From positions 1 to 64,000 of the forward strand of contig VBWA01000029.1 of assembly GCA_006218025.1 (NCBI GenBank): a stretch of 64,000 nucleotides of DNA. The letters run 5' to 3'. This document shows positions 6,597 to 63,657 of this stretch, one piece after another. Position 1 is the stretch's first letter, and each line of letters starts with the position of its first letter. The notes below the pieces were generated by a model. It had not been told where the DNA came from. It did not search any database and saw only the letters and a list, made by a program, of their open reading frames with translations. Both the position numbers and the translations under genes were made by a program. This DNA is from Rhodocyclaceae bacterium. Lineage in GTDB: Bacteria; Pseudomonadota; Gammaproteobacteria; Burkholderiales; Rhodocyclaceae.

Positions 6597-7946
6597 ATGG
6601 AAATGAGCATTGCACTGGTGGCGGGCCTGGTGATCGGCGGCGTGCTGGTCGCCTGGGTTCTCGGCGTGCGCGTGCGCGAGGCGCAGGCTCGGCTGGCCCG
6701 GCAGGAAAGCGAACTGGCGGCGCTGCGTGCCCAGGAGTCGGCGCTGGCGATACGCTGCGCCACCCTGCAAACCGAGCTGGAAAAGGACCAGGCCCTGTTC
6801 GCCGAGCGGCAAGCCACGCTCGAAGCCGCGCGCGACAGCTTCGCCGACGCCTTCAAGGTGATTTCGGCCGATGCGCTGGCGAAGAACAACCAGTCATTCC
6901 TCGAACTCGCCCGCGCCACGCTGGAGGCGCAGCAGGCGGCCGCGCTGGCCTCGGCGCGGACCGATCTGGACAAGCGCCAGCTGGCCATCGGCGAGCTGGT
7001 GGCGCCGGTCAAGGTGTCGCTGGAAAAATTCGAACTGCATATCCAGGGCATCGAAAAGTCGCGCATCGACGCCTACGCCACGCTGACCGAGCAGGTGCGC
7101 GCCATGGCCGAGGCGCAGGGGGCATTGCGCCTGGAAACCGGCAACCTGGTCAAGGCCCTGCGCGCGCCGCAAACGCGCGGGCGCTGGGGCGAGCTGCAAC
7201 TCAAGCGCGTGGTCGAAATGGCCGGCATGCTCGATCACTGCGACTTCTTCGAGCAGGAAAGCACCACCACCGAAGACGGCCGGCTGCGCCCCGACATGGT
7301 CATCAAGCTGCCTGGCGGCAAGAACATCGTGGTCGATGCCAAGGCGCCGCTGGCCGCCTACCTCGAAGCGCTGGAAGCGACCGACGAGGAGGAGAAGAAG
7401 CGCAAGCTGGCCGATCACGCACGCCAGGTGCGCGAGCACCTCAAGAAGCTCGGCCAGAAAGCCTACTGGGAGCAGTTCCAGCCCTCGCCCGATTTCGTCG
7501 TGCTGTTCCTGCCCGGCGAGATGTTCTACTCGGCCGCGCTGGAGGCCGATCCCTCGCTGATCGAGCAGGGCGTCGAGCAGCGCGTGATCCTCGCCACGCC
7601 GACCACGCTGATCGCGCTGCTGCGCGCTGTCGCCTATGGCTGGACGCAGCAGGCGCTGACCGAAAACGCCGAGCGCATCAGCCAGCTCGGGCGCGAGCTT
7701 TACGACCGCATCGCGACGGTGGCCGAACACTGGGGCCGCGTCGGCAAGAACCTCGGCGAGGCGGTCGGCGCCTACAACGAGTCGGTGGCCTCCATGGAGA
7801 GGCGGGTGCTGGTCTCGGCGCGCAAGTTCCGCGACCTGAAAGTAGGCAGCGAGGACAAGGAAATCCGCGACCTCAACCCGGTCGAGGCGCTGCCGCGCGA
7901 GCCGCAGGCGCCCGAATTGCTGGCGAAGGATAGGCTCATCCCATGA
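6597..7946 (+). CDS. rmuC: DNA recombination protein RmuC
   Basis: A 449-residue protein with an N-terminal membrane anchor (residues about 4-22), a long coiled coil (about 25-150) and the RmuC domain (PF02646) from about 170 to 400. Conserved stretches include '[22 protein letters not shown]', '[22 protein letters not shown]' and '[11 protein letters not shown]'. The RmuC core resembles PD-(D/E)XK nucleases, and the family limits inversion at short inverted repeats. An in-frame ATG two codons downstream (6603) is an equally possible start. A variant copy of the bipartite 21-bp motif lies on the opposite strand at 6736-6756. Confidence 0.9.
6736..6756 (-). repeat. Bipartite 21-bp motif, weaker copy
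   Basis: On the minus strand AGCGT, ATCG, CCAGCGCCGACT, antisense in rmuC. The right half is perfect; the left half has two changes. Confidence 0.6.
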
Positions 7947-7992
7947 GCCTTGCGGCGGGCAGACTGTTCTCCATTCTCAAGGAGGCAGTCAC

Positions 7993-8109
7993 ATGTACAT
8001 CGATCAGGTATTCGTCCAGCAATCCGTTCATCCCGCCGATCTCGCCGTGTTCATCGTCACCACGACCCTGTGTGCACTCGGCGCCCTGATGTTGCCGCTG
8101 GCGGGATAA
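7993..8109 (+). CDS. 38-residue single-membrane-span peptide
   Basis: A short open frame of 38 codons encoding a peptide with one hydrophobic helix ('DLAVFIVTTTLCALGALMLPL') after a polar N-terminus of about 15 residues. The support is a near-perfect ribosome-binding site AAGGAGG ending six bases before the ATG, stronger than most in this window, and a clean gap between rmuC and the ORF6N gene. No family is recognised. It could be a regulatory membrane peptide or a small toxin-like peptide; no evidence separates these. Confidence 0.5.
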   Translation: MYIDQVFVQQSVHPADLAVFIVTTTLCALGALMLPLAG

Positions 8110-8699: not shown

Positions 8700-8722
8700 T
8701 CTGCGGACGTGTGGGGTCCACG

Positions 8723-11437
8723 ATGATTCGTTCCGATTTGCCCTTTGTTTCGCTGGCCGAGCTGCCCGGCGGGCCGGAGCCGTTGGTGCTGTGCGCCACG
8801 GCGCGCCTGGCGACCGGGCTGCGCCGGGCTCACGGTGAGTTGCAGGCGGCGCGCGGCGCCGTGACCTGGCAGGCGTTGCAGAGTTCGACGCCGGCCATGT
8901 GGCTCGACCACCTGAGCTCATCGGCACTGTTGCGCGGCGAGATCCAGCCGGCCAGCGTGCCTGGAACTTTTCTGTCGCGTGCGCAGGAGCGGAGCTTGTG
9001 GGAGCAGGCGATTGCGCGCGATACGGGCGCGGTGGCGGAACTGTTCGATCGCGAAGGGATGGCGCTGGCGGCGATGGAGGCCGCGAGCCTGCAGCGGGCA
9101 TGGCGCATCGAGGTGCCGGAGCCACTGCATACCGAGGAGTACCGCGCCTTCCTGCGCTGGCGCGACGCCGTGGCCGAAGCCTGCCAGGCCGGTTCCTGGC
9201 GCACGGCGGATGAGGTCATGGCATGGCGCATCGAATGCATAGCACGTGGCATCGGCGGTCTGCCGGCGCGCCTCGGCATTGCCGGCTTCATTGCGCCCGA
9301 TCCGCTGGTCTCGCGCCTGCTGGTGGTGCTGGAAGCGCGCGGCGTCGAGTTGTTCCGGCTCGATTTCGGGCGCGGAGAAACCATGCTTGCGGCCGGCGCC
9401 GAATTGCCGGACGCCGAAGCCGAATGCATCGCCGCGGCGAACTGGGCGCGTGACCGGCTGGCGCGGGATGCGTCGTCCCGCGTGCGCATCGCCGTCGCCG
9501 ATCTGCCGGCGCGCCGGCGGCTGCTCGAATCCGCGCTCGAAAATAGTCTGCATCCCGATGCCGTCGGCGTCGGCTGGGCGGCGCTGGAACGCGACTTTGC
9601 GTTCGCGGCCGGCTCGCCGCTGGCGGCCGAGCCGCTGGTCGATGTCGCCCTGCGCCTGCTGCAGCTACTGGTTCATTCGCAGCGCGTGGCGCAGACCGAG
9701 TTCGGTGCCTTGCTCTGCGGTCCCGGCTGGTCGGCCGATGTCGACGAAGCCGATGCGCGCGCGAGCATCGAAGCCGTATTGCGCGAACTTCTGCCGCCCG
9801 AAACCAGCCTCGAACGCCTCGTCCGTGCGGTACTGCGCCAGGCCGACGCCCTGCAGGCGTCGCGCCTTGCGGCCGATCTCGGTGCGCTGCTGGAGGCCGC
9901 GCGCCGCGCGCCGCGCCGCCAGTTGCCATCGGCGTGGGCTGCGGTCTTCGCCGCGCTGCTCGATGCCCTCGGCTGGCCCGGGCAGCGCACTCTGCTGGCG
10001 ACGGAGCGCGCGGCGGTCGACGAATTGCGCGAGGCTCTCGGCGGCCTGCTCGCGCTGGACGGCATCCTCGGCCGCGTCGATGGCGGCGAGGCTCTGCGCC
10101 AATTGCAGCGGCAGTGTCGCGATCAGGCGTTTGCCGCCGCGCGCCAGACCCCGGCACGGGTCGAGATATGCAGCCTGGCAGATGCCCTCGCCGGTCCGGT
10201 GGACGGGCTCTGGGTCATGGGCCTCAACGAAGGCGCATGGCCGCCTGCGCCGCGACCGAACCCGCTGTTGCCCGCGGAATTGCAGCGTCGCGCCGGTATC
10301 GCCGCAGCGCGTGCCGACAGCCTGGCGGTCGAGGCGCAAAGCCTGCAGGCCTTGTGGTGCGAAAGCGCCGGCGAGGTGGTGTTCTCCTGGGCGCAGCGCG
10401 AAGGCGAGCGGCCGCTACGCGCCAGCCCGCTACTGGCGGAAATTCCGCGCCGCGAGTGGCCGTCGCTGCCGGTGATGCCGTTCTCGCCGGAACCGCTTGA
10501 GCGGCTCGATGACGCGAAGGCACCTCCCGTCGGTGCGGACGAACGCATCCGCGGCGGCACGGCGCTGCTGGCGGCGCAGGCAGTGTGCCCGGCATGGGCT
10601 TTCTATCAATACCGGCTCGGGGCCGCCGTGTTGCCAGCGCCGACTTTCGGGCTCGATGCGCGGGCACGCGGCTCGTTGCTGCATGCGGCGCTCGAGGAAT
10701 TCTGGCGTGGGCGCAGCCTGGCCGATCTGACACGGATGGATGAGGTCACCCGCGGCGCCGAAATCCGGCGCGTGGTGGCGCATGCGCTGGCCGAGTTCGA
10801 CCGCGATGCGGTCGAGCCGCTGCCGCCGCGCTTGCGCCAACTCGAAGGCGAGCGGCTGCAGGCGCTGCTTGCGGTCTGGCTCGAGGTCGAGGCGCAGCGC
10901 GCGCCTTTCCGCGTGGTTGGCTGCGAGGAAAGACATGCACTCGACATCGAAGGCCTGCCGGTGCGCGTGACGATCGACCGCATCGACGAACTCGAAGACG
11001 GGCGGCTGGTGGTGATTGACTACAAGAGCGGCCGCAAGGTTTCGGCCGACAGCTGGGCCGAACAGCGCATCAGCGAACCGCAACTGCCGATCTATGCGGC
11101 GCTGGCCTTCCCCGGCCGCGCCGTGGCGGCCGTGGCGCTGGCCCGCGTCACGCGCGACGAGCCGGGCTTTCTCGGTGTGGCGGAAAGCGACGGCCTGTTG
11201 CCCGACGTGAAAGCTCTCGATGCCCAGCGCAAGCGCTATGCGGAAGACGAGTTTCCCGACTGGCAGACGCTGCGCCGCCTCTGGGCCGAGCGCATCACCG
11301 ATCTCGCGCGCGAAGTGCGCGACGGCATCGCGGCGGTCGTCTTCGATGATGAAAAGAATATCCAGTATTGCGATGTGCGGCCGCTGCTGCGCGTCGCCGA
11401 GCGACGGCAACAATTCGACGAGACGGGCGAGCCATGA
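8723..11437 (+). CDS. AddB-like double-strand-break repair nuclease subunit
   Basis: About 904 residues, matching the betaproteobacterial AddB-like 'probable DNA repair protein' family that pairs with an AddA-like helicase. The body is a diverged, helicase-like fold without a convincing Walker A. The C-terminus is a PD-(D/E)XK nuclease: 'ARGSLLHAALEEFW' (about residue 650), 'VTIDRIDELEDGRLVVIDYKSG' (about 755-770), with the Asp and the DYKSG Lys as catalytic residues. With the downstream helicase it should process double-strand ends before RecA loading. ATG 8723 is chosen; an in-frame GTG at 8711 is possible. The stop overlaps the next start (ATGA), indicating translational coupling. Confidence 0.85.
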   Translation: MIRSDLPFVSLAELPGGPEPLVLCATARLATGLRRAHGELQAARGAVTWQALQSSTPAMWLDHLSSSALLRGEIQPASVPGTFLSRAQERSLWEQAIARDTGAVAELFDREGMALAAMEAASLQRAWRIEVPEPLHTEEYRAFLRWRDAVAEACQAGSWRTADEVMAWRIECIARGIGGLPARLGIAGFIAPDPLVSRLLVVLEARGVELFRLDFGRGETMLAAGAELPDAEAECIAAANWARDRLARDASSRVRIAVADLPARRRLLESALENSLHPDAVGVGWAALERDFAFAAGSPLAAEPLVDVALRLLQLLVHSQRVAQTEFGALLCGPGWSADVDEADARASIEAVLRELLPPETSLERLVRAVLRQADALQASRLAADLGALLEAARRAPRRQLPSAWAAVFAALLDALGWPGQRTLLATERAAVDELREALGGLLALDGILGRVDGGEALRQLQRQCRDQAFAAARQTPARVEICSLADALAGPVDGLWVMGLNEGAWPPAPRPNPLLPAELQRRAGIAAARADSLAVEAQSLQALWCESAGEVVFSWAQREGERPLRASPLLAEIPRREWPSLPVMPFSPEPLERLDDAKAPPVGADERIRGGTALLAAQAVCPAWAFYQYRLGAAVLPAPTFGLDARARGSLLHAALEEFWRGRSLADLTRMDEVTRGAEIRRVVAHALAEFDRDAVEPLPPRLRQLEGERLQALLAVWLEVEAQRAPFRVVGCEERHALDIEGLPVRVTIDRIDELEDGRLVVIDYKSGRKVSADSWAEQRISEPQLPIYAALAFPGRAVAAVALARVTRDEPGFLGVAESDGLLPDVKALDAQRKRYAEDEFPDWQTLRRLWAERITDLAREVRDGIAAVVFDDEKNIQYCDVRPLLRVAERRQQFDETGEP
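10625..10645 (+). repeat. Bipartite 21-bp motif, exact copy
   Basis: GCCGT, GTTG, CCAGCGCCGACT, inside the AddB-like gene. It is read there as A-V-L-P-A-P-T, in frame. Confidence 0.85.
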
Positions 11438-14400
11438 GCGACTTGCTGCGGGAAGACGAGGCCAACCGCCGCCGTGCGCTGGAGATTGCCTCCTTCATCG
11501 TCGAGGCGCCGGCCGGGGCAGGCAAGACCGAGCTGCTCACGCAGCGCTACCTGCGCCTGCTGGCGACGGTGGACGAGCCCGAAGAAATCATCGCCATCAC
11601 CTTCACCAACAAGGCGGCCGGCGAGATGCGCCAGCGCATCGCGGACAGCCTCGCGCTGGCAAGGCAGGCAGGCATGCCCGAGGCCGCGCACAAGCGCGTC
11701 ACCTGCGAGCTGGCACGTGCCGCGCTGGCGCGCTCGGCCGAGCTGGGCTGGCAGATCGAAACCCAGCCGGGGCGGCTGCGCCTGACCACCATCGACGCGC
11801 TATGCGCCGGCCTGGCGCGGCAGATGCCGCTGCTGTCGCGCTTCGGCGCGCAGCCTGCCGTGGCCGAGGAAGCCAAACGGCATTACGACGAGGCCGCGCG
11901 GCGGGCGCTCGATCATCTCGAAGGCAAGGGTGAGCGAGTTGAAGATGGGCGCGAGCATGCCGAGGCGGTGGCCACCGCGCTGGCGCATCTCGACAACGAC
12001 GTCACGCGGCTGGCGCGCCTGCTGGCCGAGATGCTGGCGCGGCGCGAGCAGTGGCGCGAGATTGGTGAACTCGACCATCCCGAGTCGGCGATCGGCGAGG
12101 CACTCGAGGAGATGGTCGGTGAGGAAATGGCGCTGATCGCGGAGGTGCTCGACGACGAATGGCAAGGGCAATGGATGCCGCTGGCGCGCTTCGCCGCGGA
12201 CAAGCTCGGCGGCGCGAATTTGGCAAACTCGCTGAGCGACTGGACCGAAGCGCTGAGCGATGATCCGCAGCAACTGCCGTGCTGGCGGGCGCTGGCCGAA
12301 TTGCTGCTGACGCAGAAGGACGAGCCGCGCAAGACCGTGACGGTGAAGAACGGCTTCCCGGCGGGCAAGGAATTCAAGGCACAGAAGGACGCCATGCTGG
12401 AACGTCTGGCCGCGCTCGACGGCGGGGCAGTTGCCGCCCTGCAGCGACTGCGCGAACTGCCGGCGCCCGACCACGACAACGATGCCGTGGTGCGTGCGCT
12501 GGCGCGTCTGATGAAGCTCGCCGCAGCCGAACTGTGGCTGGTGTTTCGCGAAGCCGGCGAGGTCGATTTCGGCGAGCTCGCGGCGCGCGCCATTGACGCG
12601 CTGGGCGACGAGCTCGATCCGTCGGAACTCGGCCTGCGCCTCGATTACCGCATCCGCCATCTGCTGGTCGACGAATTCCAGGACACCAGTCCGGCGCAGA
12701 TCGAATTGCTCGAGCGCCTCACCGCCGGCTGGCAGCTGGACGACGGCCGCACGCTGTTCGCGGTGGGCGACCCGATGCAGTCGATCTACCGTTTCCGCAA
12801 GGCCGACGTCGGGCTTTTCCTGCGTGTCGCCGAGAACGGCATCGGCGCGCTGCGGCTGACGCCCCTGCGCCTGTCGCGCAACAACCGTTCCTGTGCGGCC
12901 GTGGTGGACTGGATCAACGCGAGCTTCCCGGCGGTGTTCCCGGCCATCGACGATCCCCTGCGCGGCGAGATTCGCTATCGCGAGTTCGTCGCCACGCGCG
13001 ATGCGCTGCCGCAGGCCGGCGTCATGATTCACCCGGTACTGGCGGCAAAAGGAGAGGGCGCCGCGGGCGCCCGTGGCGAGGCGCAAAAGATCATCGATTT
13101 GATCGAAGCCGAATGGTGCGAGGACCCGACGCGCAGCATCGCCGTGCTGGTGCGCGCCCGCGATCACCTCGCTGCGCTGGTCGCCGCGATCCGCCGCCAT
13201 GGCGCCGCCTGGCGTTTCTCGGCGGTCGAAATCGAGCCGCTGGCGGACCGTCAGGCGGTGCAGGACCTGATCTCGCTGACCCGCGCGCTGCATCACCGCG
13301 CCGACCGCGTGCATTGGCTGGCCGTCCTGCGCGCGCCGTGGTGCGGCCTGACGCTTTCCGATCTGCACGCGCTGGCCGGCGACGATCACGACGCCACGAT
13401 CTGGGTACTGATGAACGATGCCGCGCGCATCGAACGGCTGTCCGCCGATGGCCGCCAGCGGCTCGCCCATGTGCGCGAGGTGCTGGCCGAGGCGCTGGCC
13501 GGGCAGGGTCGGCAGCGGCGCCGGCGCTGGGTCGAGGACGCCTGGAAAAAGCTCGGCGGGCCGGCCTGCCAGGGCGGCGCGAGCGAGGCCGCCGATGCGC
13601 AGGCCTACTTCAATCGCCTCGACGCGCTGGATGCGGCGGGGCGCTTCGTGCTCGACAGTCTCGAAGACGACATGGGCCGCCTCTATGCCGCGCCCGATGC
13701 GCAGGCCGATGGCCGGCTGCAGCTGATGACCATTCACAAGGCCAAGGGGCTGGAGTTCGACACCGTGATCCTGCCCGGGCTGCATCGCGAAGCGGCGGGG
13801 CGCGATATGCCGCTCCTGGCATGGGACAGTTTTCCGCTGGCCTCGGGCGAGCGCCTGATCGCCGCGCCGGTGAATCCGCGCCGCGGCAGGACGGCCGGCG
13901 AGCCGACGCTGTATGACTTCCTGCAGCGCATGGAGCGCGAGCGCAGCCGCAACGAGGAGGCCCGCGTGCTCTATGTCGCCGCCACGCGCGCGGTGCGCCG
14001 CCTGCATCTGGTCGCGGTCGCGCTGCTCGACGAGGATGGGGCGCTCGTGGCGCCGCGCGCCGCTTCGCCGCTGGCGCGGCTGTGGCCGGCCGTCGAGGCA
14101 GAGTTCGTGCGGGCGGCCGCCGCACCACCAGCGCCGACTTCGGAAGTCTCCAATGATCTGGCGCACTTCGTGCCGCAATTGCTGCGTTTGAAGGAACCAG
14201 TCGCAACGCCAGGCTGGCACGCACCTGATCTCCCGGCACCCGCGACGGACCAGCGCGAGGAGACCGCCGACCCGCTGGCCGCCGCGGTGGGCACCCTGAC
14301 CCACGCCGTGCTGGAACTGATCGCGGCCGATCCGGAAGCCTGGACCGGCCCGCGCGTGATGGAGCGCCAGCCCGGCTTCGAGCGCTGGCTGGCCAGCCGC

Positions 14401-14835
14401 GGCTGGTCGCCGGCGGATGCGCGGGCGGGAGCGGCCCGTGTCGCGAGCATGCTGGCGACGACGCTGGCCAGTGCAGATGGCCAGTGGGTGCTGCGCCGCC
14501 GCGCCGATGCGGCGGCCGAACTGGCACTGACAAGAGTCGGCGGGGAAGATGACGGCGGCGCGCTCTGCGTACCTGGGACTCCGCTTCGCGGGCAGGTAAC
14601 CCGCGTCGTCGATCGCAGTTTTGTCGAAGACGGCGTGCGCTGGATCATCGACTACAAGACCGCCGACCTGGGCCCGGCCGCCGGTCTTCGGCAGCTTGCG
14701 GACCACGCCGCGCGCTACCGGCGGCAGCTCGAATCCTATGCCGCGCTGTTCGCCGCCGAGCGTGTGCCGCAGCGCCTCGCCGTGTTCTATGTTGCCCATG
14801 GCATTTTGGCGCGTCTGGAATACAATCCCTCCTGA
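11434..14835 (+). CDS. AddA-like UvrD/Rep-family helicase-nuclease
   Basis: About 1133 residues, a superfamily 1A helicase with a C-terminal nuclease. Motifs in order: Walker A 'EAPAGAGKTELL' (about residue 28), Ia 'AITFTNKAAGEM', II 'LLVDEFQDTSPAQ' (about 412), III 'FAVGDPMQSIYRFRKAD', V 'LMTIHKAKGLEFDTV' (about 765), VI 'VLYVAATRAVRRLHLV', and nuclease 'WIIDYKTAD' (about 1070). It is the motor partner of the AddB-like protein, with which it overlaps by four bases. The pair replaces RecBCD in many betaproteobacteria. The C-terminal nuclease region also has 'GTLTHAVLEL', the GxxxH element of the fold. Confidence 0.9.
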   Translation: MSDLLREDEANRRRALEIASFIVEAPAGAGKTELLTQRYLRLLATVDEPEEIIAITFTNKAAGEMRQRIADSLALARQAGMPEAAHKRVTCELARAALARSAELGWQIETQPGRLRLTTIDALCAGLARQMPLLSRFGAQPAVAEEAKRHYDEAARRALDHLEGKGERVEDGREHAEAVATALAHLDNDVTRLARLLAEMLARREQWREIGELDHPESAIGEALEEMVGEEMALIAEVLDDEWQGQWMPLARFAADKLGGANLANSLSDWTEALSDDPQQLPCWRALAELLLTQKDEPRKTVTVKNGFPAGKEFKAQKDAMLERLAALDGGAVAALQRLRELPAPDHDNDAVVRALARLMKLAAAELWLVFREAGEVDFGELAARAIDALGDELDPSELGLRLDYRIRHLLVDEFQDTSPAQIELLERLTAGWQLDDGRTLFAVGDPMQSIYRFRKADVGLFLRVAENGIGALRLTPLRLSRNNRSCAAVVDWINASFPAVFPAIDDPLRGEIRYREFVATRDALPQAGVMIHPVLAAKGEGAAGARGEAQKIIDLIEAEWCEDPTRSIAVLVRARDHLAALVAAIRRHGAAWRFSAVEIEPLADRQAVQDLISLTRALHHRADRVHWLAVLRAPWCGLTLSDLHALAGDDHDATIWVLMNDAARIERLSADGRQRLAHVREVLAEALAGQGRQRRRRWVEDAWKKLGGPACQGGASEAADAQAYFNRLDALDAAGRFVLDSLEDDMGRLYAAPDAQADGRLQLMTIHKAKGLEFDTVILPGLHREAAGRDMPLLAWDSFPLASGERLIAAPVNPRRGRTAGEPTLYDFLQRMERERSRNEEARVLYVAATRAVRRLHLVAVALLDEDGALVAPRAASPLARLWPAVEAEFVRAAAAPPAPTSEVSNDLAHFVPQLLRLKEPVATPGWHAPDLPAPATDQREETADPLAAAVGTLTHAVLELIAADPEAWTGPRVMERQPGFERWLASRGWSPADARAGAARVASMLATTLASADGQWVLRRRADAAAELALTRVGGEDDGGALCVPGTPLRGQVTRVVDRSFVEDGVRWIIDYKTADLGPAAGLRQLADHAARYRRQLESYAALFAAERVPQRLAVFYVAHGILARLEYNPS
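14119..14139 (+). repeat. Bipartite 21-bp motif, one mismatch
   Basis: GCCGC, ACCA, CCAGCGCCGACT, inside the AddA-like gene. Only the last base of the left half differs from the consensus. Confidence 0.75.
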
Positions 14836-15852: not shown

Positions 15853-16938
15853 ATGACATTGCTCGAAATCCGCAACGTAACCCGCCGCTTCGGCTCGCTC
15901 GAGGCGGTGAAGGACGTTTCCATTTCGATCGAGGCGGGCGAGTTCTTCACCCTGCTCGGTCCTTCGGGCTGCGGCAAGACCACCATCCTGCGCATGATCG
16001 CCGGCTTCGACGAACCCGACGAAGGCGAGATCCTGCTCGACGGCAAATCGCTGGCCGGCGTGCCGCCGGAAAAGCGGCCGTTGCACACGGTGTTCCAGAG
16101 CTACGCACTGTTTCCGCACATGACCGTGGCCGGCAACATCGCGTTCCCGCTGGAAATGACCGGAAAGTCGGCGCTGGAGATACGGCGCCGCGTTGATGAA
16201 ACCCTGGCGCTGGTGCATCTGGAGGACAAGGCCGACAGCTTTCCCCACGAACTCTCCGGCGGGCAGAAGCAGCGCGTGGCGCTGGCCCGCGGCCTGGTGA
16301 ACAAGCCACGCCTGTTGCTGCTCGACGAACCGCTCGGCGCGCTCGACGCCAAGCTGCGCGTCGAAATGCAGATCGAATTGATCGCGCTGCAGCGCGAAGT
16401 CGGCATCACCTTCATTTTCGTCACGCATTCGCAGCAGGAAGCGCTGGCCCTGTCGCACCGCATCGCCGTCATGAAGGACGGCCGCGTCGAGCAGTGCGAC
16501 GAGCCGGACCAGCTCTATACCCAGCCCGCCAACCGCTTCGTCGCCGACTTCATCGGCAAGATCAACCTGCTCGACGTCGAGGTGACCGCGTCGAGCAAGG
16601 TCCTGTTGAGCCTGCGCGCCGCCGGTCTCGGCGAGATTGCCGCGACCGATCCGCGGCCGATCGCGGTGGGCGAGCGCGGCGTCTTCGCCCTGCGCCCCGA
16701 GCTGATCCGCGTCTTCGGTCATCGCGAAGCCGCCGACCTGAAGAACCGCTTCGAGGGCGTGGTGCGCGAGCTGCTCTATCTCGGCGACGTCACGCTGTAC
16801 AAGATCGAGCTGGCCAACGGCGCCCTGATCGAGGCGCTGATGCCCAACGCCGCGCCGGGCCGCGCCAAGTTTCACGAGGTCGGCGACGCGGTCGGCGTCT
16901 GCTGGCGGCACGACGCCGGCGTGTACTTACGGAGTTGA
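15853..16938 (+). CDS. potA: Polyamine-type ABC transporter ATP-binding protein
   Basis: A 361-residue ATPase with Walker A 'GPSGCGKTT', Q-loop region 'VFQSYALFPHMTV', signature 'LSGGQKQRVALARGL', Walker B 'LLLLDEPLGALD' and the His switch 'IFVTHSQQEAL'. A C-terminal TOBE_2 domain follows, typical of PotA/PotG. It energises import of spermidine or putrescine with the next three genes. The substrate is inferred from the binding protein family. An exact copy of the bipartite 21-bp motif lies on the opposite strand inside this gene. Confidence 0.9.
   Translation: MTLLEIRNVTRRFGSLEAVKDVSISIEAGEFFTLLGPSGCGKTTILRMIAGFDEPDEGEILLDGKSLAGVPPEKRPLHTVFQSYALFPHMTVAGNIAFPLEMTGKSALEIRRRVDETLALVHLEDKADSFPHELSGGQKQRVALARGLVNKPRLLLLDEPLGALDAKLRVEMQIELIALQREVGITFIFVTHSQQEALALSHRIAVMKDGRVEQCDEPDQLYTQPANRFVADFIGKINLLDVEVTASSKVLLSLRAAGLGEIAATDPRPIAVGERGVFALRPELIRVFGHREAADLKNRFEGVVRELLYLGDVTLYKIELANGALIEALMPNAAPGRAKFHEVGDAVGVCWRHDAGVYLRS
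16166..16186 (-). repeat. Bipartite 21-bp motif, exact copy
   Basis: On the minus strand GCCGT, ATCT, CCAGCGCCGACT, antisense inside potA. Confidence 0.85.
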
Positions 16939-18562: not shown

Positions 18563-19647
18563 AATCGCCGTCTTACCAGCGCCGACTTCTAGCCGTCGTT
18601 CTGCCGGCCTTGCTGCTGCTGGCGAGCCTGCCGGCCCGCGCCGCCGACACGCTCTACCTCTACAACTGGAACAACTACATTTCCGAGGACACGGTGCAGC
18701 GCTTCGAGGCGCATTGCCGCTGCCGGCTCAAGCAGGACTACTACTCCGACAACGAGGAAATGCTGGCCAAGCTGGAAGCCGGCGCCGTCGGCTACGATGT
18801 CCTGGTGCCCACCGGCAATGCCGTCGAATCGCTGGTGCGGCGGAATGCGCTGCGCGAGATCGACCGCGCCCGCCTGCCCAACCTGCGCAACATCAAGCGC
18901 GAATTTCTCGACACATGGTTCGATCCGGGCAACCGCTACTCGGTGCCCTACGCCACCTCCGTCACGCTGATCGGCTTCAATGCCAACAAGATGCAGGAGC
19001 TCGGGCTGCCCACCGACAGCTGGGCGCTGATCTTCGAGCCGAAGCACTTGAAGAAGATCAAGGGCCGCGTCACGGTGCTCAACAGCCAGCGCGAGCTCAT
19101 GGCGGCGGCGATGCGATATCTCGGCCATTCGGTGCAGGAGCACGACCCCGCAAGGTGGGAGGAGGCCAAGCAGGTGATCCTGCGCGCCAAGCCCTACTGG
19201 GCGGCGTTTTCCAACAGCACCTACATCAAGGACCTGGCCATCGGCACCATCTGGGTCGCTCACGGCTATTCGAACGACATGTGGCGGGCGCAGCAGGATG
19301 CCGCCGCGGCGAAGCGGCCCTTCGCCATCGGCTTCGCCACGCCGAAGGAAGGCGCGGTGCTGGCGGTGGATAATTTCGTGCTGCACAAGTCCGGCCGCCG
19401 GCCGGACCTGGCGCACCAGTTCATCGACTTCATGCTCGCCGGCGAAAACGCCGCCGACGTCTCCAACCTGATCGGCGCCGGCAATCCCAATGGCGCCGCG
19501 ACGCCGCGCATCCTGCCCGAGATCGCCGCCAACCCGGGCATCTTCCCGCCGCCGGCCGAATTGCAGCGGCTGGAAATGCTGAGGGACTTCGATCCGAAAC
19601 TGCGGCGGACTCTGTCGCGGATGTGGACCGAGATCAAGGTTCGGTGA
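18559..19647 (+). CDS. potD: Periplasmic polyamine-binding protein (PotD/PotF type)
   Basis: About 362 residues with a Sec signal peptide (LLAVVLPALLLLASLPARA, cleavage after ARA) and the spermidine/putrescine-binding fold starting 'DTLYLYNWNNYISEDTV'. Further hallmarks are 'YDVLVPTGNAVESLVRR', 'YSVPYATSVTLIGFN' and 'AVLAVDNFVLHKSGRRPD'. It delivers the substrate to PotBC. The GTG start overlaps the potC stop by four bases. The signal-peptide region contains an exact copy of the bipartite 21-bp motif (18567-18587). Spermidine versus putrescine cannot be decided. Confidence 0.88.
   Translation: MKSPSYQRRLLAVVLPALLLLASLPARAADTLYLYNWNNYISEDTVQRFEAHCRCRLKQDYYSDNEEMLAKLEAGAVGYDVLVPTGNAVESLVRRNALREIDRARLPNLRNIKREFLDTWFDPGNRYSVPYATSVTLIGFNANKMQELGLPTDSWALIFEPKHLKKIKGRVTVLNSQRELMAAAMRYLGHSVQEHDPARWEEAKQVILRAKPYWAAFSNSTYIKDLAIGTIWVAHGYSNDMWRAQQDAAAAKRPFAIGFATPKEGAVLAVDNFVLHKSGRRPDLAHQFIDFMLAGENAADVSNLIGAGNPNGAATPRILPEIAANPGIFPPPAELQRLEMLRDFDPKLRRTLSRMWTEIKVR
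18567..18587 (+). repeat. Bipartite 21-bp motif, exact copy
   Basis: GCCGT, CTTA, CCAGCGCCGACT, inside the potD signal-peptide region. It is in a different frame from the copy in the AddB-like gene (read as S-P-S-Y-Q-R-R-L). Confidence 0.85.
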
Positions 19648-19883
19648 CGCTGATCTATGTCGGCACTGGCGCTAAGGCGATTTATGTACTTGTGGCAACG
19701 CACTGCAATATCGATCCGCGATTCTTCAATCCCGATGGGCTTGCCGAGCTCGGTGTTTTGGGCTATGACGATGGAAGATGCGCTCTGCCGCCTTCGTCGC
19801 TTCCATGGCAGAAATGCAATTGCCCTCATCGAAAAGCGTCGGCAGCACTATGCCTGCCGTACCTATTCTTCAAAGGAGACATC
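19648..19883 (+). other. Non-coding stretch upstream of the HAD lipoprotein gene
   Basis: Short open frames run through this 236-bp interval on both strands but none has a convincing start, ribosome-binding site or family match. The composition is more AT-rich than the flanking pot operon, as in the following gene. It probably holds the promoter of the HAD gene. Confidence 0.4.
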
Positions 19884-51066: not shown

Positions 51067-52158
51067 ATGGCGCGACCGATACGCGCGCGGCTGGACTGGT
51101 CGGCGCTGCGCCACAATCACAATGTCGTGCGGCGCCATGCCGGCGGCGCCAGGATCTGGAGCGTGGTCAAGGCCGACGCCTACGGCCACGGCTTGTTGCC
51201 CGCGGCCCGTGCCTTGAACGAGGTCACCGACGGCTTTGCGCTGGTGGAACTCGAAGGCGCGATGGCGCTGCGCGATGCGGGAATTTCGCAGCCCATCCTG
51301 ATGCTGGAAGGCCCTTATCAGCCCGATGAGTTGCCGCTGTACGGCGAACTCGAGCTGACTCCCGTGCTGCATACGACGTGGCAGGTCGACGCGCTGGTCG
51401 ATGCCTGTCTGCCGATCCGCCTGCCGGTCTATCTGAAGCTCAATACCGGCATGAACCGCCTCGGCTTCAATGCCGATGAGTTCATCGAGGCACTGGCCAG
51501 GCTCGCTGCCGCAAATTGTGTCGGCTCCGTCACGCTGATGACGCATTTCGCCGATGCCGACGAAGCGCGTGGCATCGAGCAGCAACTCCAGCGGTTTCGG
51601 GTCATGGCGGGCAGCCGCGAGCTGCCCGTGTCGATGGCCAATTCCGCCGCCTTGCTGCGCTTCCCGGAGGCCCGGGGAGACTGGGTGCGCCCCGGCATCA
51701 TGCTCTACGGTGCATCGCCGTTTCCGGCCATGCAAAGCGCCGCCGAACTCGATCTGCGGCCCGTGATGACGCTCGAAAGCGAATTGATCGCCGTGCGCGA
51801 ACTCGGTCCCGGCGACACGGTGGGCTACGGCAGCAGTTTCGTTGCCGATCGGGCCATGCGCATCGGCGTGGTGGCCTGCGGCTATGGCGACGGCTATCCG
51901 CGTCATGCACCGACCGGCACGCCGGTGCAGGTTGCCGGGCAGCGTACGCATACTCTGGGCCGCGTTTCGATGGACAAGATCTGCGTCGATCTGAGCGGGC
52001 TGTCGTCAGCAGTCGGCGTTGGCGATACGGTGACCTTGTGGGGCGGCGAGGGCGCCATGTACCTGCCCGCCGACGATGTGGCCACAGCAGCCGGCACCGT
52101 GGCCTATGAATTGTTCTGCGGCCTCGCCGCGCGTGTGCCGGTAATCGAAGTCGACTGA
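51067..52158 (+). CDS. alr: Alanine racemase
   Basis: A 363-residue PLP enzyme making D-alanine for peptidoglycan. The PLP Lys is in 'WSVVKADAYGHGLLPAA'; the catalytic Tyr is in 'DTVGYGSSFVADRAMRIG'; 'MNRLGFNADEF' and 'RVSMDKICVDLS' are also typical. It starts eight bases after the LysR gene. Confidence 0.95.
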   Translation: MARPIRARLDWSALRHNHNVVRRHAGGARIWSVVKADAYGHGLLPAARALNEVTDGFALVELEGAMALRDAGISQPILMLEGPYQPDELPLYGELELTPVLHTTWQVDALVDACLPIRLPVYLKLNTGMNRLGFNADEFIEALARLAAANCVGSVTLMTHFADADEARGIEQQLQRFRVMAGSRELPVSMANSAALLRFPEARGDWVRPGIMLYGASPFPAMQSAAELDLRPVMTLESELIAVRELGPGDTVGYGSSFVADRAMRIGVVACGYGDGYPRHAPTGTPVQVAGQRTHTLGRVSMDKICVDLSGLSSAVGVGDTVTLWGGEGAMYLPADDVATAAGTVAYELFCGLAARVPVIEVD

Positions 52159-53535: not shown

Positions 53536-56037
53536 ATGTCATCGCTGCGTCTCGCCTTGCGCATGCTCGCCCGCGACTGGCGCGCCGGCGAACTGACGGT
53601 GCTCGGCATTGCGCTGCTGCTGGCCGTCGCCGCGCTGACCAGCGTCGGCTTTCTGACCGACCGCGTCGAGCAGGCGCTGAAGCTCGAATCGCACCAGTTG
53701 CTCGGCGGCGATCTGCTGCTGACCGCCGATCATCCCTGGGCCGATGGTTTTCGCCGGGAAGCCGCGGCGCGCGGCCTGCGCCAGGCCGAGAGCGCCACCT
53801 TCCCGAGCATGGTGAGTTTGGGCGACGCCACCATGCTCGCCGAAATCAAGGCCGTGTCGGCGGACTATCCCTTGCGCGGAGCCTTGCGCACGGCTCCGGT
53901 GCTCAATGCGCCCGACGTCGAAATGAATGGCGCCACCGGGCGCGTACCGAAGGCCGGTGAAGCCTGGCCCGACGAACGCCTGGCGACGACCTTGAGTCTC
54001 GCTCCGGGCACCTCGCTCGCGCTCGGCAAGATCGCGGTGGTCAGCGGCCCGGTGCTGACGCTGGAACCCGATCGCGGCATGAACGTGTTCGCGCTGGCGC
54101 CGCGCCTGATGATCAATCTGGCCGATCTGCCGGCGACCGGCCTGATCCAGAGCGGCAGCCGGATCAGCTATCGCCTGCACCTGGCCGGCGAGGCTGCCGC
54201 AGTGACGGCCTATGAGGCCTGGGCGAAATCGCAACTCGGGCGCGGCGAAAAGATCGAAAGCCTCGACAACGCGCGGCCCGAGATTCGCAACGTGACCGAG
54301 CGGGCGCAACGCTTTCTGCGCCTGGCCGCGCTGCTGGCCGTGATTCTTGCCGCGGTGGCCGTGGCGCTGGCGGCCGAGCGCTACATGCGGCGCCATCTCG
54401 ACGGCTGCGCGGTGATGCGCTGCATGGGCGCCTCGGGTCCGCAACTGCTGCTGATTCACGGCGGCGAATTCATGCTGTTCGGTTTGGCTGCAACGCTGGC
54501 TGGCTGCCTTGCCGGCTTTGCCGTGCAGGGCGCCCTGCAGCAACTGCTGGCGGGCCTGATGGTGACGAAGCTGCCCGCACCTTCGCTGCTGCCCTGGCTG
54601 CACGGCTTGCTGGTGGGGCTGACGCTGATCATCGGCTTCGCCCTGCCGCCCCTGCTGCGTTTGAAGCGCGTGCCGACCATACGCGTGCTGCGCCGCGAGT
54701 GGAGCGGGTCGGAACCCGCTTCGATCGGCGCCTACCTTCTGGGCGCACTGGTGCTGGCCGCACTGATGCTGTGGATGGCGGGGGAACTGCGCCTGGGACT
54801 GATCGTGCTGGCAGGATTCCTCATCGCGCTCGGCTTCTTCGCCCTGATGGCGCGCCTGCTGCTGGCCGCGCTGGGACGGCTGCGTCCGTCGGGCAGGGGC
54901 TATGGCTGGCGTCATGGACTGGTCAATCTGCGTCGGCGCCTGGCGGCAACCATGGTGCAGGCGGTGGCGCTGGCCCTGGGCCTCACCGCCTTGCTGCTGC
55001 TTACGGTGGCGCGCGGCGATCTGCTCGACAGCTGGCTGGCCCGCGTTCCGGCCGATGCGCCGAATCGATTCGCGATCAACATCCAGCCCGATCAGCGTGT
55101 CGCCATCGCCGACTTCTTCAAGGCGCGCGGGCTGCCGACGCCGGAACTGGAGCCGATGGTGCGCGGCCGTCTGGTGCAGGTCAATGCCCAGCGGGTCGGA
55201 CCGGAGACCTATGCCGACGATCGCGCCCAACGCCTCGTCGATCGGGAATTCAATCTGTCGTGGTCGGCCCGGCTTCCCGCCGGCAACACGGTCAGTGGCG
55301 GGCGCTGGCATGGCGCCACGCAGGCGGCGGAGTTCTCGGTGGAACAGGGTCTGGCCGAGACGCTGAATCTGAAACTGGGCGATCGCCTGCTCTACGACAT
55401 CGCCGGCAACCGGGTCGAGGCGGTGATCACCAGTCTCAGGAAGCTCGACTGGGATTCGATGCGCGTCAATTTTTTCGTCATGTCGCCGCCCGGCGTGCTC
55501 GACAATTTTCCGGTCAGCTACATCACCAGCTTTCATCTGCCGGCCGATAAGGCCGGCGCCATTCCCGAACTGGTGCGCGCCTTTCCCAACCTCACCGTGA
55601 TCGATGTCGCGGCTTTGGTCAAGCAGCTGCATGCGACGATCGACCAGGTCGCCCGCGCCGTGCAACTGGTGTTCGGCTTCGCCGTGCTGGCCGGGCTGGC
55701 GGTGCTCTACGCGGCGCTGCAAGCCAGCAGCGACGAACGCCGCCACGAACTGGCCGTGCTGCGCGCCCTGGGCGCCCGCAGCCGGCAGTTGTCCGCTGCG
55801 CTGCTCGCCGAGTTCGCCGCGCTCGGCGCGCTTGCCGGCCTGCTCGCCGGCATCGCCGCCAGCCTCATCGGCTGGGGTCTGGCGCGCTTTGCCTTCCGCC
55901 TCGACTACCTGCCGCAGCCGCAACTGTGGCTCATCGGTCTGCTGGCCGGCACCGTGCTGGTGGTTGTAGCCGGCTGGCTCGGCGCGTCCTCGATGCTGCG
56001 CCAGTCGGCGCTGCCGGCCCTGAGGGCGGCGCAGTAA
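53536..56037 (+). CDS. FtsX-type ABC transporter permease (YbbP-like)
   Basis: An 833-residue membrane protein with two FtsX-type permease units. Helices lie at the N-terminus (LTVLGIALLLAVAALTSV), in two clusters around residues 255-460, and in the C-terminal unit (about 710-825). Large periplasmic MacB-like domains lie between them. This fits YbbP, which works with the ATPase YbbA. No ATPase gene is next to it in this window. The exported or extracted substrate is unknown; lipids or lipoproteins are usual for this fold. Confidence 0.85.
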   Translation: MSSLRLALRMLARDWRAGELTVLGIALLLAVAALTSVGFLTDRVEQALKLESHQLLGGDLLLTADHPWADGFRREAAARGLRQAESATFPSMVSLGDATMLAEIKAVSADYPLRGALRTAPVLNAPDVEMNGATGRVPKAGEAWPDERLATTLSLAPGTSLALGKIAVVSGPVLTLEPDRGMNVFALAPRLMINLADLPATGLIQSGSRISYRLHLAGEAAAVTAYEAWAKSQLGRGEKIESLDNARPEIRNVTERAQRFLRLAALLAVILAAVAVALAAERYMRRHLDGCAVMRCMGASGPQLLLIHGGEFMLFGLAATLAGCLAGFAVQGALQQLLAGLMVTKLPAPSLLPWLHGLLVGLTLIIGFALPPLLRLKRVPTIRVLRREWSGSEPASIGAYLLGALVLAALMLWMAGELRLGLIVLAGFLIALGFFALMARLLLAALGRLRPSGRGYGWRHGLVNLRRRLAATMVQAVALALGLTALLLLTVARGDLLDSWLARVPADAPNRFAINIQPDQRVAIADFFKARGLPTPELEPMVRGRLVQVNAQRVGPETYADDRAQRLVDREFNLSWSARLPAGNTVSGGRWHGATQAAEFSVEQGLAETLNLKLGDRLLYDIAGNRVEAVITSLRKLDWDSMRVNFFVMSPPGVLDNFPVSYITSFHLPADKAGAIPELVRAFPNLTVIDVAALVKQLHATIDQVARAVQLVFGFAVLAGLAVLYAALQASSDERRHELAVLRALGARSRQLSAALLAEFAALGALAGLLAGIAASLIGWGLARFAFRLDYLPQPQLWLIGLLAGTVLVVVAGWLGASSMLRQSALPALRAAQ

Positions 56038-61251: not shown

Positions 61252-61299
61252 TTCCGCAAGGTGCCGGGCGAGGCGGCAGAGTGATCCGCTGCCGTTCGT

Positions 61300-63657
61300 T
61301 CAGCGCCTGAGCTTGGCGAATGCGGCCGCCATGGCGCCGGCACTGGCCGGCTCGCGCTTTTCGGGCGCCGGCTTGCCGGCGCTGCCGCCGCGATTCGCCG
61401 TATCACTAGCGCCGACTCTTGCCGGTGCCTTCGATGACGCTGCCTTTGGCGGCACATCGTCGGCGAGGCGCATGGTCAGCGCAATGCGCTTGCGTGCGGC
61501 GTCGACTTCGATCACCTTGACCTTCACCACGTCGCCGGCCCTGACCACCTCGTGCGGGTCCTTGACGAAGCGATTGGCCAGTGCGGAGACATGCACCAGG
61601 CCGTCCTGATGCACGCCGATATCGACGAAGGCGCCGAAGTTGGTGACGTTGGTCACGACGCCTTCCAGCAGCATGCCGGGCTGGATATCCTTGAGTTCTT
61701 CGACGCCTTCCTTGAAGGTAGCCGCCTTGAATTCGGGGCGCGGGTCGCGGCCGGGTTTTTCCAGCTCTTTCAGGATGTCCTGCACGGTCGGCAGGCCGAA
61801 GCGCTCGTCGGTGTACTTGCGGGCATCGAGCGTGCGCAGGGTGGCGGCATCGCCGACGAGTTCCCTGACGCCCCGCCTGATGTCCCTGAGAATGCGTTCG
61901 ACCACCGGATAGGCCTCCGGGTGCACCGCCGAGGCATCCAGCAGATTCTCGCTGGCGCTGACGCGCAGGAATCCCGCCGCCTGTTCGAAGGCCTTGTCGC
62001 CGAGCCGCGGCACCTCCTTCAGCTCGGCACGTGACTTGAAGGCGCCGTGGGCGTCGCGATAACTGACGATGTTGCCGGCCAGCGTCGCGTTGAGTCCGGA
62101 GATGCGCTTGAGCAGCGCCGCGCTCGCGGTATTCACATCGACGCCAACCGAGTTCACGCAGTCCTCCACCACGGCATCGAGCGAGCGCGCCAGGCGCGAC
62201 TGGTTGACGTCGTGCTGGTACTGGCCGACACCGATGGCCTTGGGGTCGATCTTCACCAGCTCGGCCAGCGGGTCCTGCAGGCGGCGCGCGATGGACACCG
62301 CTCCGCGCAAGGACACGTCGAGATCGGGGAACTCCTTCGCCGCGAGTTCGGACGCCGAATACACCGAGGCGCCGGCTTCCGACACCACGATGCGGGTCAG
62401 CTTGAGTTCCGGATGACGGCGCATCAGTTCGGCGGCGAGCTTGTCGGTTTCGCGGCTGGCCGTGCCGTTGCCGATGCTGATCAGGCCGGCGCCGTGCTTC
62501 TGCGCCAGTTGGCGCAGCACGGCAAGCGAACCTTCCCAGTCGCGCCGCGGCTCGTGCGGGTAAATCGTCGTGGTATCGACCACCTTGCCGGTGACATCGA
62601 CCACCGCCACTTTGACGCCGGTGCGGATCCCGGGGTCGAGCCCGATCACCGTGTGTAGCCCGGCGGGCGCCGCCAGCAGCAGGTCGTGCAGGTTGCGCGC
62701 GAAGACGCGGATGGCTTCCTCCTCGGCGCGCTCGCGCAACTGGTTCATCAGTTCCGATTCGAGATGCAGCGAGAGCTTCACCAGCCAGGCCCAGCGCGCG
62801 GTTTCCTGCAGCCACTTGTCCGCCGCACGGCCCTCGTCGCGAATCGCGAAATGGCTGGAGACCATGCCGACGCAAGGCGATGATTCAGGCGGGTCGCGCA
62901 GCTCCTGATCGGCCTTCAGGGCCAGACGCAGGATGTCCTCGTTGCGTCCGCGCAGCAGCGCCAGGGCGCGGTGCGAGGGCACCGTCTTGATGGCTTCGCG
63001 GAAGTCGAACCAGTCGCGGAACTTCGCGCCTGCTGCTTCCTTGCCCGCGACCACGGTGGAGACGAGCAGGGCGTAGTCGCCTAGATAGCTGCGCAGCTTC
63101 GCCAGCAGCGCGGCGTCCTCGCTGAAGCGCTCCATCAGGATCTGGCGCGCGCCATCGAGCGCGGCCTTGATGTCGGGAACGTGCCGCTCCGCAGGCTCCT
63201 GCTGCGGGTTTACGTACTTGGCCGCTTCGACTTCCGGCGTCAGGGTCGGATCGGCGAACAGCGCGTCGGCCAGCGGTTCGAGGCCGGCCTCGCGGGCGAT
63301 CTGCGCCTTGGTGCGGCGCTTCTGCTTGTAGGGCAGGTAGAGGTCTTCGAGGCTCTGCTTGGTTTCCGCCGCGTCGATCGCGGCCTGCAGTTCGGGCGTC
63401 AGCTTGCCCTGTTCCGCTATCGAGGAAAGGATCACGGCGCGGCGATCTTCCAGCTCGCGCAGGTAGTTCAGCCGCTCTTCGAGATTGCGCAACTGCGTGT
63501 CGTCGAGGTTGTCAGTCACTTCCTTGCGGTAGCGCGAGATGAAGGGCACGGTGGCGCCCTCGTCGAGCAGTTGCACGGCGGCGGCAACCTGTTGCGGGCG
63601 GACGCCGAGTTCTTCGGCAATGCGTTGGGCGATGCGCGACTGAATCGAGGGCGGCAT
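61300..63657 (-). CDS. tex: Tex-family RNA-binding transcription accessory protein
   Basis: A 785-residue Tex protein. The N-terminus reads '[20 protein letters not shown]' and the helical '[19 protein letters not shown]'; the YqgF/RuvC-like domain has '[18 protein letters not shown]'; a helix-hairpin-helix region follows ('[19 protein letters not shown]'); the C-terminal S1 domain is '[21 protein letters not shown]'. It has a low-complexity Ala/Lys/Pro tail. Tex affects transcription of virulence genes in other species. A one-mismatch copy of the 21-bp motif lies in the tail. Confidence 0.95.
61397..61417 (+). repeat. Bipartite 21-bp motif, one mismatch
   Basis: GCCGT, ATCA, CTAGCGCCGACT, antisense to tex, in its low-complexity tail. 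Confidence 0.75.

What the first reader, a model, noticed from the sequence alone, without database searches (positions are those of the whole stretch)
6736..61417. Recurrent bipartite 21-bp DNA motif on both strands: possible uptake, Chi-like or chromosome-organising signal
GCCGT, four free bases, then CCAGCGCCGACT, usually followed by a pyrimidine-rich triplet. Six sites match all 17 fixed bases (10625, 18567, 20592 and 47062 on the plus strand; 16166 and 37996 on the minus strand). Three more have one mismatch (14119, 45432, 61397), and one has two (6736). A rough composition-based estimate expects far fewer than one exact hit in 64 kb. The coding copies fall in three reading frames and on both strands, so codon use or a shared peptide does not explain them; one copy is intergenic. 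Dispersed, frame-independent motifs of this kind are known as DNA uptake sequences, recombination hotspots or nucleoid-protein sites. One copy sits in each AddAB-like gene. The right half alone (AGCGCCGACT) also occurs at about 31575 and 56003 on the minus strand.
Basis: partly seen in the sequence, partly recalled or inferred. Interest (0 to 1): 0.8.

Follow-up and report, generated by a model that had tools for sequence, protein, structure and literature searches.

The report
Uptake-like DNA signature of Sterolibacteriaceae bacteria
A 25-letter DNA word is repeated hundreds of times on both strands across the genomes of one group of environmental bacteria, in the pattern of the "self" labels that two other bacterial families use to choose which loose DNA to take up; if that is what it does, it would be a third such family.

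Summary
The window lies in a genome of the genus inferred to be Sulfuritalea (Betaproteobacteria), with 413 exact copies of the 17 fixed bases (206/207 by strand; reversed control 0). The full site is about 25 bp, rtCGCCGTnYCRCCAGCGCCGACTYYY, about one per 4.5 kb. All 31 genomes of that genus searched have it (6-413 exact copies), as do genomes of five more genera. In a Tex tree the six motif-bearing genera that could be included form one clade. One genome, G098, carries a one-base dialect.

Sites use five of six reading frames, are three-fold enriched between genes, show no leading/lagging polarity (43:43) and persist at orthologous places while flanks diverge. Several species have few copies left. 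This is the signature of Neisseria DUS and Haemophilus USS; a DNA-uptake signal is the best reading (about 0.6).

Against: no ComEA was found in five of six motif-rich genera; the ComP-type pilin family is equally common in motif-free relatives; G016, nearly motif-free, keeps ComEC and pilin genes. The receptor is unidentified and nothing was tested at the bench. Chi-like and mobile-repeat readings are contradicted; a chromosome-organising site is not excluded.

The parts
6736..6756 (-). motif copy, 2 mismatches, in rmuC (antisense)
   Evidence: host gene PF02646 RmuC; 1 mismatch at the same place in closed genome G002
8711..11437 (+). addB-like gene (TIGR03623 probable DNA repair protein, PDDEXK_1), host of the 10625 site
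10625..10645 (+). motif copy, exact, in addB-like gene (sense, frame 0)
   Evidence: compared in 23 genus genomes
11434..14835 (+). addA-like helicase gene, host of the 14119 site (best NCBIfam hits AddA/RecB, all below their cut-offs)
14119..14139 (+). motif copy, 1 mismatch, in addA-like gene
   Evidence: also 1 mismatch in G002
16166..16186 (-). motif copy, exact, antisense in potA-like ABC ATPase gene
   Evidence: 1 mismatch in G002
18567..18587 (+). motif copy, exact, intergenic in my gene calls
   Evidence: 1 mismatch in G002
19658..19678 (-). degenerate motif copy, 3 mismatches, intergenic in my gene calls
20592..20612 (+). motif copy, exact, intergenic in my gene calls
31576..31596 (-). 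motif-like copy, 2 mismatches, overlapping the next one, in uppS
   Evidence: not kept in G002 (6 mismatches, gap included)
31587..31607 (+). motif copy, 3 mismatches, in uppS; the orthologous G002 site is exact
37996..38016 (-). motif copy, exact, antisense in lpxD
   Evidence: exact in G002
45432..45452 (+). motif copy, 1 mismatch, in tsaB
   Evidence: also 1 mismatch in G002
47062..47082 (+). motif copy, exact, in cation-efflux gene (frame 1)
   Evidence: exact in G002
52011..52031 (-). motif copy, 2 mismatches, antisense in alanine racemase gene
   Evidence: also 2 mismatches in G002
55094..55114 (+). degenerate motif copy, 3 mismatches, in ybbP-like permease gene
61397..61417 (+). motif copy, 1 mismatch, antisense near the 3' end of the gene at 61300-63657 (-), which I call tex-like
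   Evidence: S1-domain hits below cut-off, HHH domain at 61963-62157; the name Tex is recalled

Best explanation
The motif is a genome-wide DNA uptake signal: a roughly 25-bp bipartite site (GCCGT, four semi-free bases, CCAGCGCCGACT, pyrimidine tail) read as double-stranded DNA by a cell-surface receptor of a DNA-exchange machine. Shown here: copy number far over chance, both strands equally, frame independence, intergenic enrichment, no replication polarity, restriction to one clade among the genera tested, a one-base dialect in one genome, conservation at orthologous places and repeated reduction. Inferred: copies spread by molecular drive, since fragments carrying the site are taken up and recombined more often, and decay where that preference is lost. 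Not shown: that these bacteria take up DNA, the receptor (a type IV minor pilin is the default guess), or binding.
For: 413 exact copies, 206/207 by strand, reversed control 0; codon shuffle 31 exact observed vs mean 0.11. Mismatch classes 0/1/2/3 = 48/23/20/13 in 463 kb against a mean of 0/0/0/2.7 for three scrambled motifs. 28 of 91 sites (up to 2 mm) intergenic with 9.4% of DNA intergenic, P about 1e-8. 72 coding sites use five of six frames (31, 17, 11, 7, 6, 0), 30 sense and 42 antisense. No polarity: 43 vs 43 among 86 of 89 sites in closed G002 (counts, tally mine). 31 of 31 genus genomes carry it; the 30 other genomes of that sample have 0-2 copies; in a wider draw 21 of 199 family genomes (6 of 68 genera) have at least 100. 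Six of the seven motif-bearing genera could be put in a Tex tree and form one clade at 100/100. Dialect: right half CCAGCGTCGACT 18 times and CCAGCGCCGACT once in 145 kb of G098, against 0 and 70 in 531 kb of own DNA. Orthologous sites: fixed bases 0.98 identical vs 0.84 in flanks (8 sites); at the addB site 20 of 23 genomes are within three mismatches, 9 exact (my count), and synonymous identity is 0.82 vs mean 0.61, third of 909 overlapping windows. Low-count genomes G016, G015+G027, G021 and G025 sit among motif-rich ones in the AddB tree, and G016, G021, G025 have degraded the addB site. PilE-, FimT-, PilV-, PilW- and PilX-like genes stand in a row in G000, G002 and G016 (names mine); ComEC is found in 30 of 31 genus genomes.
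Against: ComEA was not found in five of the six motif-rich genera: no hit in the genus passes the TIGR00426 cut-off (31 genomes); HHH_3 gives only Tex-length frames in G000, G007, G017 and nothing in closed G002; of 14 further motif-bearing handles (13 distinct genomes, G248 being G099) only three have a small HHH_3 protein above cut-off. The ComP_DUS family matches the PilE-like pilin, but 185 of 199 family genomes have it, many motif-free ones score higher, and dialect genome G098 has none. G016 has lost nearly all copies but keeps ComEC and pilE- to pilX-like genes, so no machinery correlate was found. In the Tex tree G016 groups with Sulfurisoma (93/86), not with its genus, so its history is less clear than the AddB tree suggests. 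Motif-bearing G010 is also degraded at the addB site, and two unrelated addB windows have higher synonymous identity. Sites are four to five times sparser than H. influenzae USS. The predicted depletion in atypical genes was not significant (8 vs 10.9 expected, P 0.22); spacing is slightly more even than random on one contig (P 0.04), not on the other (0.43). I saw no competence data for these bacteria.
Confidence: 0.6

Rival explanations
1. Chromosome-organising or repair site: a clade-specific cytoplasmic DNA-binding protein (nucleoid protein, condensin loader or similar) needs a site every few kilobases, and each copy is held by selection.
For: Spread over all 20 sampled places of closed G002 with no origin or terminus trend; slightly even spacing on one of two contigs; conservation at orthologous places; no clean link to competence genes.
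Against: Selection would have to hold some 400 exact and about 1000 near-exact long sites, many inside genes in five frames, yet several species have lost most copies. Known organising sites are shorter, palindromic or regional (recalled). Some stray copies in low-count genomes lie in short clusters, as imported DNA would.
Confidence: 0.2
2. A sequence-gated DNA exchange route other than canonical competence, such as a domesticated phage-like transfer particle with packaging preference or a ComEA-independent uptake system, drives the same accumulation.
For: Same molecular-drive signature; no ComEA found in five of six motif-rich genera.
Against: No such particle or transfer locus was searched for; type IV pilin genes and ComEC are present.
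Confidence: 0.12
3. Chi-like recombination signal for the AddAB enzyme.
For: AddAB-like genes are present and each holds a copy.
Against: No leading/lagging polarity (43:43); about 25 bp and bipartite, while known Chi sites are 5-8 bases (recalled); low-count genomes G015, G016, G021, G025 and G027 keep addB (G001, 83% complete, has no hit).
Confidence: 0.04
4. A mobile repeat or its excision footprints.
For: Many copies, some between genes next to other short repeats.
Against: Flanks carry little information beyond about three bases either side and the inner four bases vary; copies sit at the same orthologous codons in species about 65% identical in AddB.
Confidence: 0.02

Closest known systems
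Neisseriaceae DNA uptake sequence (DUS, ATGCCGTCTGAA and dialects) read by minor pilin ComP
   Same: Many dispersed copies in both orientations, within and between genes, family-restricted, with dialects of a few bases following phylogeny (passages of PMC3630211, and PMC12616744; PMC2346458 first part)
   Different: DUS is continuous, up to about 13 bases; this is bipartite, about 25 bp, sparser, in another family, with no receptor identified. Both share GCCGT, which may be chance
Pasteurellaceae uptake signal sequence (USS, AAGTGCGGT; extended T-rich parts recalled), predicted receptor PpdA/ComN
   Same: Long asymmetric site, genome-wide, under-represented in coding DNA, explained by molecular drive (PMC7811141 passages)
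   Different: Different sequence, class Betaproteobacteria, sparser (about one per 4.5 kb against about one per 1 kb)
Chi sites of AddAB/RecBCD (recalled)
   Same: Over-represented in the genome
   Different: No polarity here; much longer
KOPS, matS and SlmA-type chromosome markers (recalled)
   Same: Dispersed protein-binding sites
   Different: Those are polar, regional or few; this is uniform and unpolarised

Membership tests
DNA uptake sequence (DUS/USS kind) | Strong genome-wide over-representation of a short motif on both strands | tested here: met
DNA uptake sequence (DUS/USS kind) | Independent of reading frame; over-represented between genes | tested here: met
   (own gene caller, 463 kb)
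DNA uptake sequence (DUS/USS kind) | No replication-strand polarity | tested here: met
   43 among 86 sites of one genome
DNA uptake sequence (DUS/USS kind) | Lineage-restricted, with dialects | tested here: met
   one dialect, in one genome
DNA uptake sequence (DUS/USS kind) | Depleted in newly acquired segments and rRNA genes | tested here: inconclusive
   GC3 proxy only, P 0.22; rRNA not examined
DNA uptake sequence (DUS/USS kind) | Organism has the core competence machinery (type IV pili, ComEA, ComEC) | tested here: inconclusive
   pilins and ComEC found; ComEA not found in five of six motif-rich genera; PilQ and DprA not searched
DNA uptake sequence (DUS/USS kind) | Motif-dependent uptake or transformation | not testable with these tools
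   needs an uptake assay
Neisseriaceae DUS/ComP system | Motif carries the DUS sequence with its CTG core | tested here: not met
   consensus is a different, longer sequence
Neisseriaceae DUS/ComP system | ComP receptor tracks the motif | tested here: not met
   PF16732 in 185 of 199 genomes regardless of motif; none in G098
Chi site | Polar relative to replication | tested here: not met
Mobile repeat | Copies share flanks or inner sequence | tested here: not met

The most novel reading that the evidence does not exclude
A third bacterial family with self-DNA recognition by uptake sequences, evolved once in the ancestor of a Sterolibacteriaceae-type clade, using a site about twice as long as known DUS and operating in many species without a recognisable ComEA, so through a partly different uptake path.
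Probability: 0.35. Interest if true: 0.9.

Novelty: new variant of a known kind. Interest (0 to 1): 0.78.

Why it matters
[quoted passage not shown] A third, environmental clade (habitat from record titles and recall) would separate explanations tied to mucosal life from general ones, give an independent set of dialects and losses for finding receptors by coevolution, and let molecular drive be studied across dozens of genomes with graded motif counts. If it is not an uptake signal, a nucleoid or repair system with about a thousand 25-bp sites per genome is itself unlike those I know of.

Tried and rejected
Chi-like reading: no polarity. Mobile repeat: flanks uninformative. Codon usage or shared peptide: five frames with different peptides, and a codon shuffle gives 0.11 exact copies against 31. 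A replacement dialect in low-count G016: none dominant in 152 kb; likewise none in samples of near-motif-free genera G032, G034, G035, G036 (20 to 100 kb each, so weak). ComP as a discriminating receptor: PF16732 is near-universal in the family. ComEA as a correlate: small HHH_3 protein only in G117, G199 and Rugosibacter-titled G250; of three extra G016 HHH hits two lie beside ORFs rich in CxxCH and do not look like ComEA, the third is next to general-secretion-like pseudopilins (my reading). Loss of the minor-pilin genes in G016: not so, pilE- to pilX-like genes are there; pilY1 would lie past the contig end. Depletion in low-GC3 genes: not significant. Clusters of stray copies in low-count genomes: I fetched twelve chosen stretches; one G135 cluster aligns with own contig C7 and a Casimicrobiaceae contig, consistent with import but not proved. 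Structure prediction was not run. Whether g88 is Rugosibacter was not settled; its member G165 has the same counts as the HGW-Betaproteobacteria-11 MAG.
Full report
WHAT WAS CHECKED. The six exact, three one-mismatch and one two-mismatch sites are all at the stated places; 15 sites appear at up to three mismatches against 0.91 expected. The window is contig C60:1-64000 of a 4.44-Mb, 141-contig genome that holds 413 exact copies, 206 forward and 207 reverse, with none for the reversed control pattern. NCBI taxonomy places Sulfuritalea, Sulfurisoma and Rugosibacter in Sterolibacteriaceae.

ANATOMY. In 463,091 bases of the own genome (399 kb of stretches plus the window) mismatch classes 0/1/2/3 hold 48/23/20/13 sites, while three scrambled versions of the motif average 0/0/0/2.7. 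That is about one site per 4.5 kb, or by extrapolation about 1000 per genome; a stricter 25-base pattern at up to two mismatches counts 665 genome-wide. The aligned sites read rtCGCCGT[ACG][CT]C[GA]CCAGCGCCGACT[CT]T[CT]g. Information falls to near background about three bases either side, and the inner bases vary, so these are not copies of a longer repeat.

PLACEMENT. With a simple codon-model gene caller of my own (406 genes, 90.6% coding), 72 of 104 sites are in genes and 32 between them. At up to two mismatches 28 of 91 are intergenic where 9.4% of DNA is (P about 1e-8). Coding sites use five of six frames, giving peptides such as KVGAGDTA, AVSPAPT and KSALA; the unused frame would encode an Arg/Trp-rich peptide. 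A synonymous-codon shuffle gives 0.11 exact coding copies against 31 observed; at one, two and three mismatches the figures are 1.5 against 17, 7.8 against 15 and 21.8 against 9 (200 shuffles). In closed genome G002 (one contig of 3,802,648 bases) twenty 20-kb samples, six of them adjacent, held 89 sites at up to three mismatches; leaving out one sample at the skew switch (3 sites), 43 lie in one orientation relative to the replichore and 43 in the other (counts; replichores assigned by me from GC skew and position). Counts per 20 kb range from 1 to 8 without an origin or terminus trend. On contig C7 spacing is slightly more even than random (CV 0.80, P 0.04); on C1 not (P 0.43).

DISTRIBUTION. 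All 31 of 31 same-genus genomes have exact copies (6 to 413), six other genera of the family 0-1, 24 other genomes of the order 0-2. A wider draw of 199 family genomes in 68 genera at up to two mismatches finds at least 100 copies in 21 genomes of 6 genera (g1, g32, g43, g62, g70, g88), 16-30 in G076, G098 and G109, and 0-11 elsewhere; reversed controls are 0-1. Twenty-two genomes were then reached through named loci, all of which held at least one copy by construction. High counts include Sulfurisoma sediminicola BSN1 201 (the same genome as G099), a Sulfurisoma MAG 473, Rugosibacter MAGs 389 and 343, and Sulfuritalea UWPOB_SULF1 624. Low ones are Curvibacter delicatus 0 at this stricter pattern, a Comamonadaceae MAG 1, Tepidicella xavieri 2, a Casimicrobiaceae MAG 5, a Betaproteobacteria MAG (G259) 8 and a Thiobacillus MAG 10; a Sulfuritalea hydrogenivorans-titled MAG has 121. 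A Tex protein tree puts the included motif-bearing genera (g1, g32, g43, g62, g70 and dialect genus g69) in one clade at 100/100, outside five near-motif-free genera of the family (0-2 copies); g88 could not be included, and only those five outside genera were available. Within that clade G016 groups with Sulfurisoma rather than g1 (93/86).

DIALECT AND LOSS. In 145 kb of G098 the right half reads CCAGCGTCGACT 18 times and CCAGCGCCGACT once; in 531 kb of own DNA the counts are 0 and 70, in 447 kb of G002 0 and 60. Genome-wide G098 has 199 matches to the T-form pattern at up to two mismatches, and the 20 listed are all exact; its 29 matches to the C-form pattern are, in the 20 listed, all T-form sites with one or two mismatches. 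A thinner mixture appears in G069 (13 matches). Because two mismatches span both forms, the counts for other genera do not separate dialects. Within the genus, an AddB tree places low-count genomes G016 (6 copies), G027 and G015 (31, 37), G021 (42) and G025 (68) among motif-rich ones, so copies were probably lost more than once (G025 is 10% contaminated and some MAGs are incomplete; G001 with 37 has no AddB hit). At the addB site 20 of 23 genomes are within three mismatches and 9 are exact, down to about 65% protein identity; G016, G021 and G025 have four or five mismatches, G027 keeps it with one, and motif-bearing G010 has three (my counts). Synonymous identity at the site is 0.82 against a gene mean of 0.61 (sd 0.075), third of 909 overlapping windows. 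Only 14 of 104 own sites fall in stretches alignable to the G002 DNA held; 13 of 14 have a G002 counterpart within three mismatches, the exception overlapping an exact one; for the 8 with at most one mismatch in the own genome, fixed bases are 98% identical and flanks 84%.

MECHANISM. Uptake sequences are the known kind of dispersed motif of this length and number that ignores reading frame and strand (my judgement). Biased uptake followed by recombination is enough to fill a genome with them, and they are expected to be under-represented in new segments, rRNA genes and coding DNA (PMC7811141, passages). The data fit: a distinct near-exact population, intergenic enrichment, conservation at old places, a dialect, and decay in some species. 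Steps shown: the pattern. Inferred: motif-biased DNA exchange. Not shown: competence, receptor, binding. The default receptor is a type IV minor pilin, as with ComP (PMC3868556, start of abstract in a listing) and the predicted ComN/PpdA (PMC12616744, passages). G000 and G002 have genes in the order pilE-fimT-pilV-pilW-pilX-pilY1, and G016 the first five up to its contig end (names from order and N-terminal motifs, with Pfam support for the first two in G000 and G002). The PilE-like protein matches ComP_DUS at 42.7 bits, cut-off 27.3, but that family occurs in 185 of 199 genomes irrespective of the motif and is missing from G098, so it does not identify the receptor.

RESULTS AGAINST. Of 14 further motif-bearing handles (13 distinct genomes) three have a small HHH_3 protein above cut-off, nine only Tex-length frames, G072 a Tex-length frame plus one hit below cut-off, and G236 none (E at most 0.001). 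ComEA is, from recall, needed for uptake in the Gram-negative bacteria studied, so either the search misses a diverged protein, another protein does its job, or the motif is not an uptake signal. G016 lost nearly all copies but kept ComEC and the pilin genes. Depletion in atypical genes was not significant. These are why confidence stays at 0.6.

NOVELTY. Paper searches in the PMC open-licence library (listings seen, the longer ones cut at 20 of 43 and 15 of 32) showed no report of uptake sequences in Rhodocyclaceae, Sterolibacteriaceae, Sulfuritalea, Sulfurisoma or Rugosibacter; 'DNA uptake sequence' with Rhodocyclaceae, and Sulfuritalea with 'natural transformation', gave no papers. PMC12616744 (passage) calls Neisseriaceae and Pasteurellaceae the only families known. 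Subscription papers and preprints were not searched. Sites lie in rmuC, addA-like and addB-like genes here, and DUS/USS have been reported biased toward genome-maintenance genes (described in PMC2346458, part 1 of 3 read); with one window this is anecdotal.

Noticed in passing
G000:C80:61030-61107 (L367); also G002:C1:2894242 and two in G016:C27: A 59-61-residue pilin resembling Geobacter-type short pilins by length and N-terminus (my reading; not searched against structures) is conserved in the three genomes looked at; such short pilins are of interest for conductive filaments.
   Followed up: no
own contig C7 about 193800-216900: A long stretch where my caller lists almost no genes within the gaps, spanning a 12-kb and a 16-kb gap between motif copies; possibly one giant gene.
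   Followed up: no
L254 629-2123 (IMG/VR contig): Tandem array of a 316-bp unit, 4.7 copies, with five motif copies in and just after it, four of them 316 apart; the unit looks integron-attC-like to my eye but was not tested.
   Followed up: no
L048 1-6122: Nine exact motif copies in 6 kb of a Sulfuritalea-titled MAG contig, not a tandem repeat; unexplained local density.
   Followed up: partly
own contigs C7:124023-124220, C1:19409-19500, C7:298921-299019: Intergenic motif copies beside short repeats of the type ccgtcattcccgcg...gcgggaatccagag, an unrelated repeat family.
   Followed up: no
L468-L470 (G135:C1:1455001-1510000): Five motif copies in 41 kb of a genome with seven; parts align at 72-88% with own contig C7 and at 75-87% with a Casimicrobiaceae contig, as for a gene cluster passed between genera.
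   Followed up: partly
window 31576-31607: Two motif-like copies overlap on opposite strands inside uppS; G002 keeps only one, exact.
   Followed up: yes
G002 and G236 genomes: No HHH_3 match at E 0.001, so the Tex-like gene found in most relatives searched appears absent or divergent.
   Followed up: no
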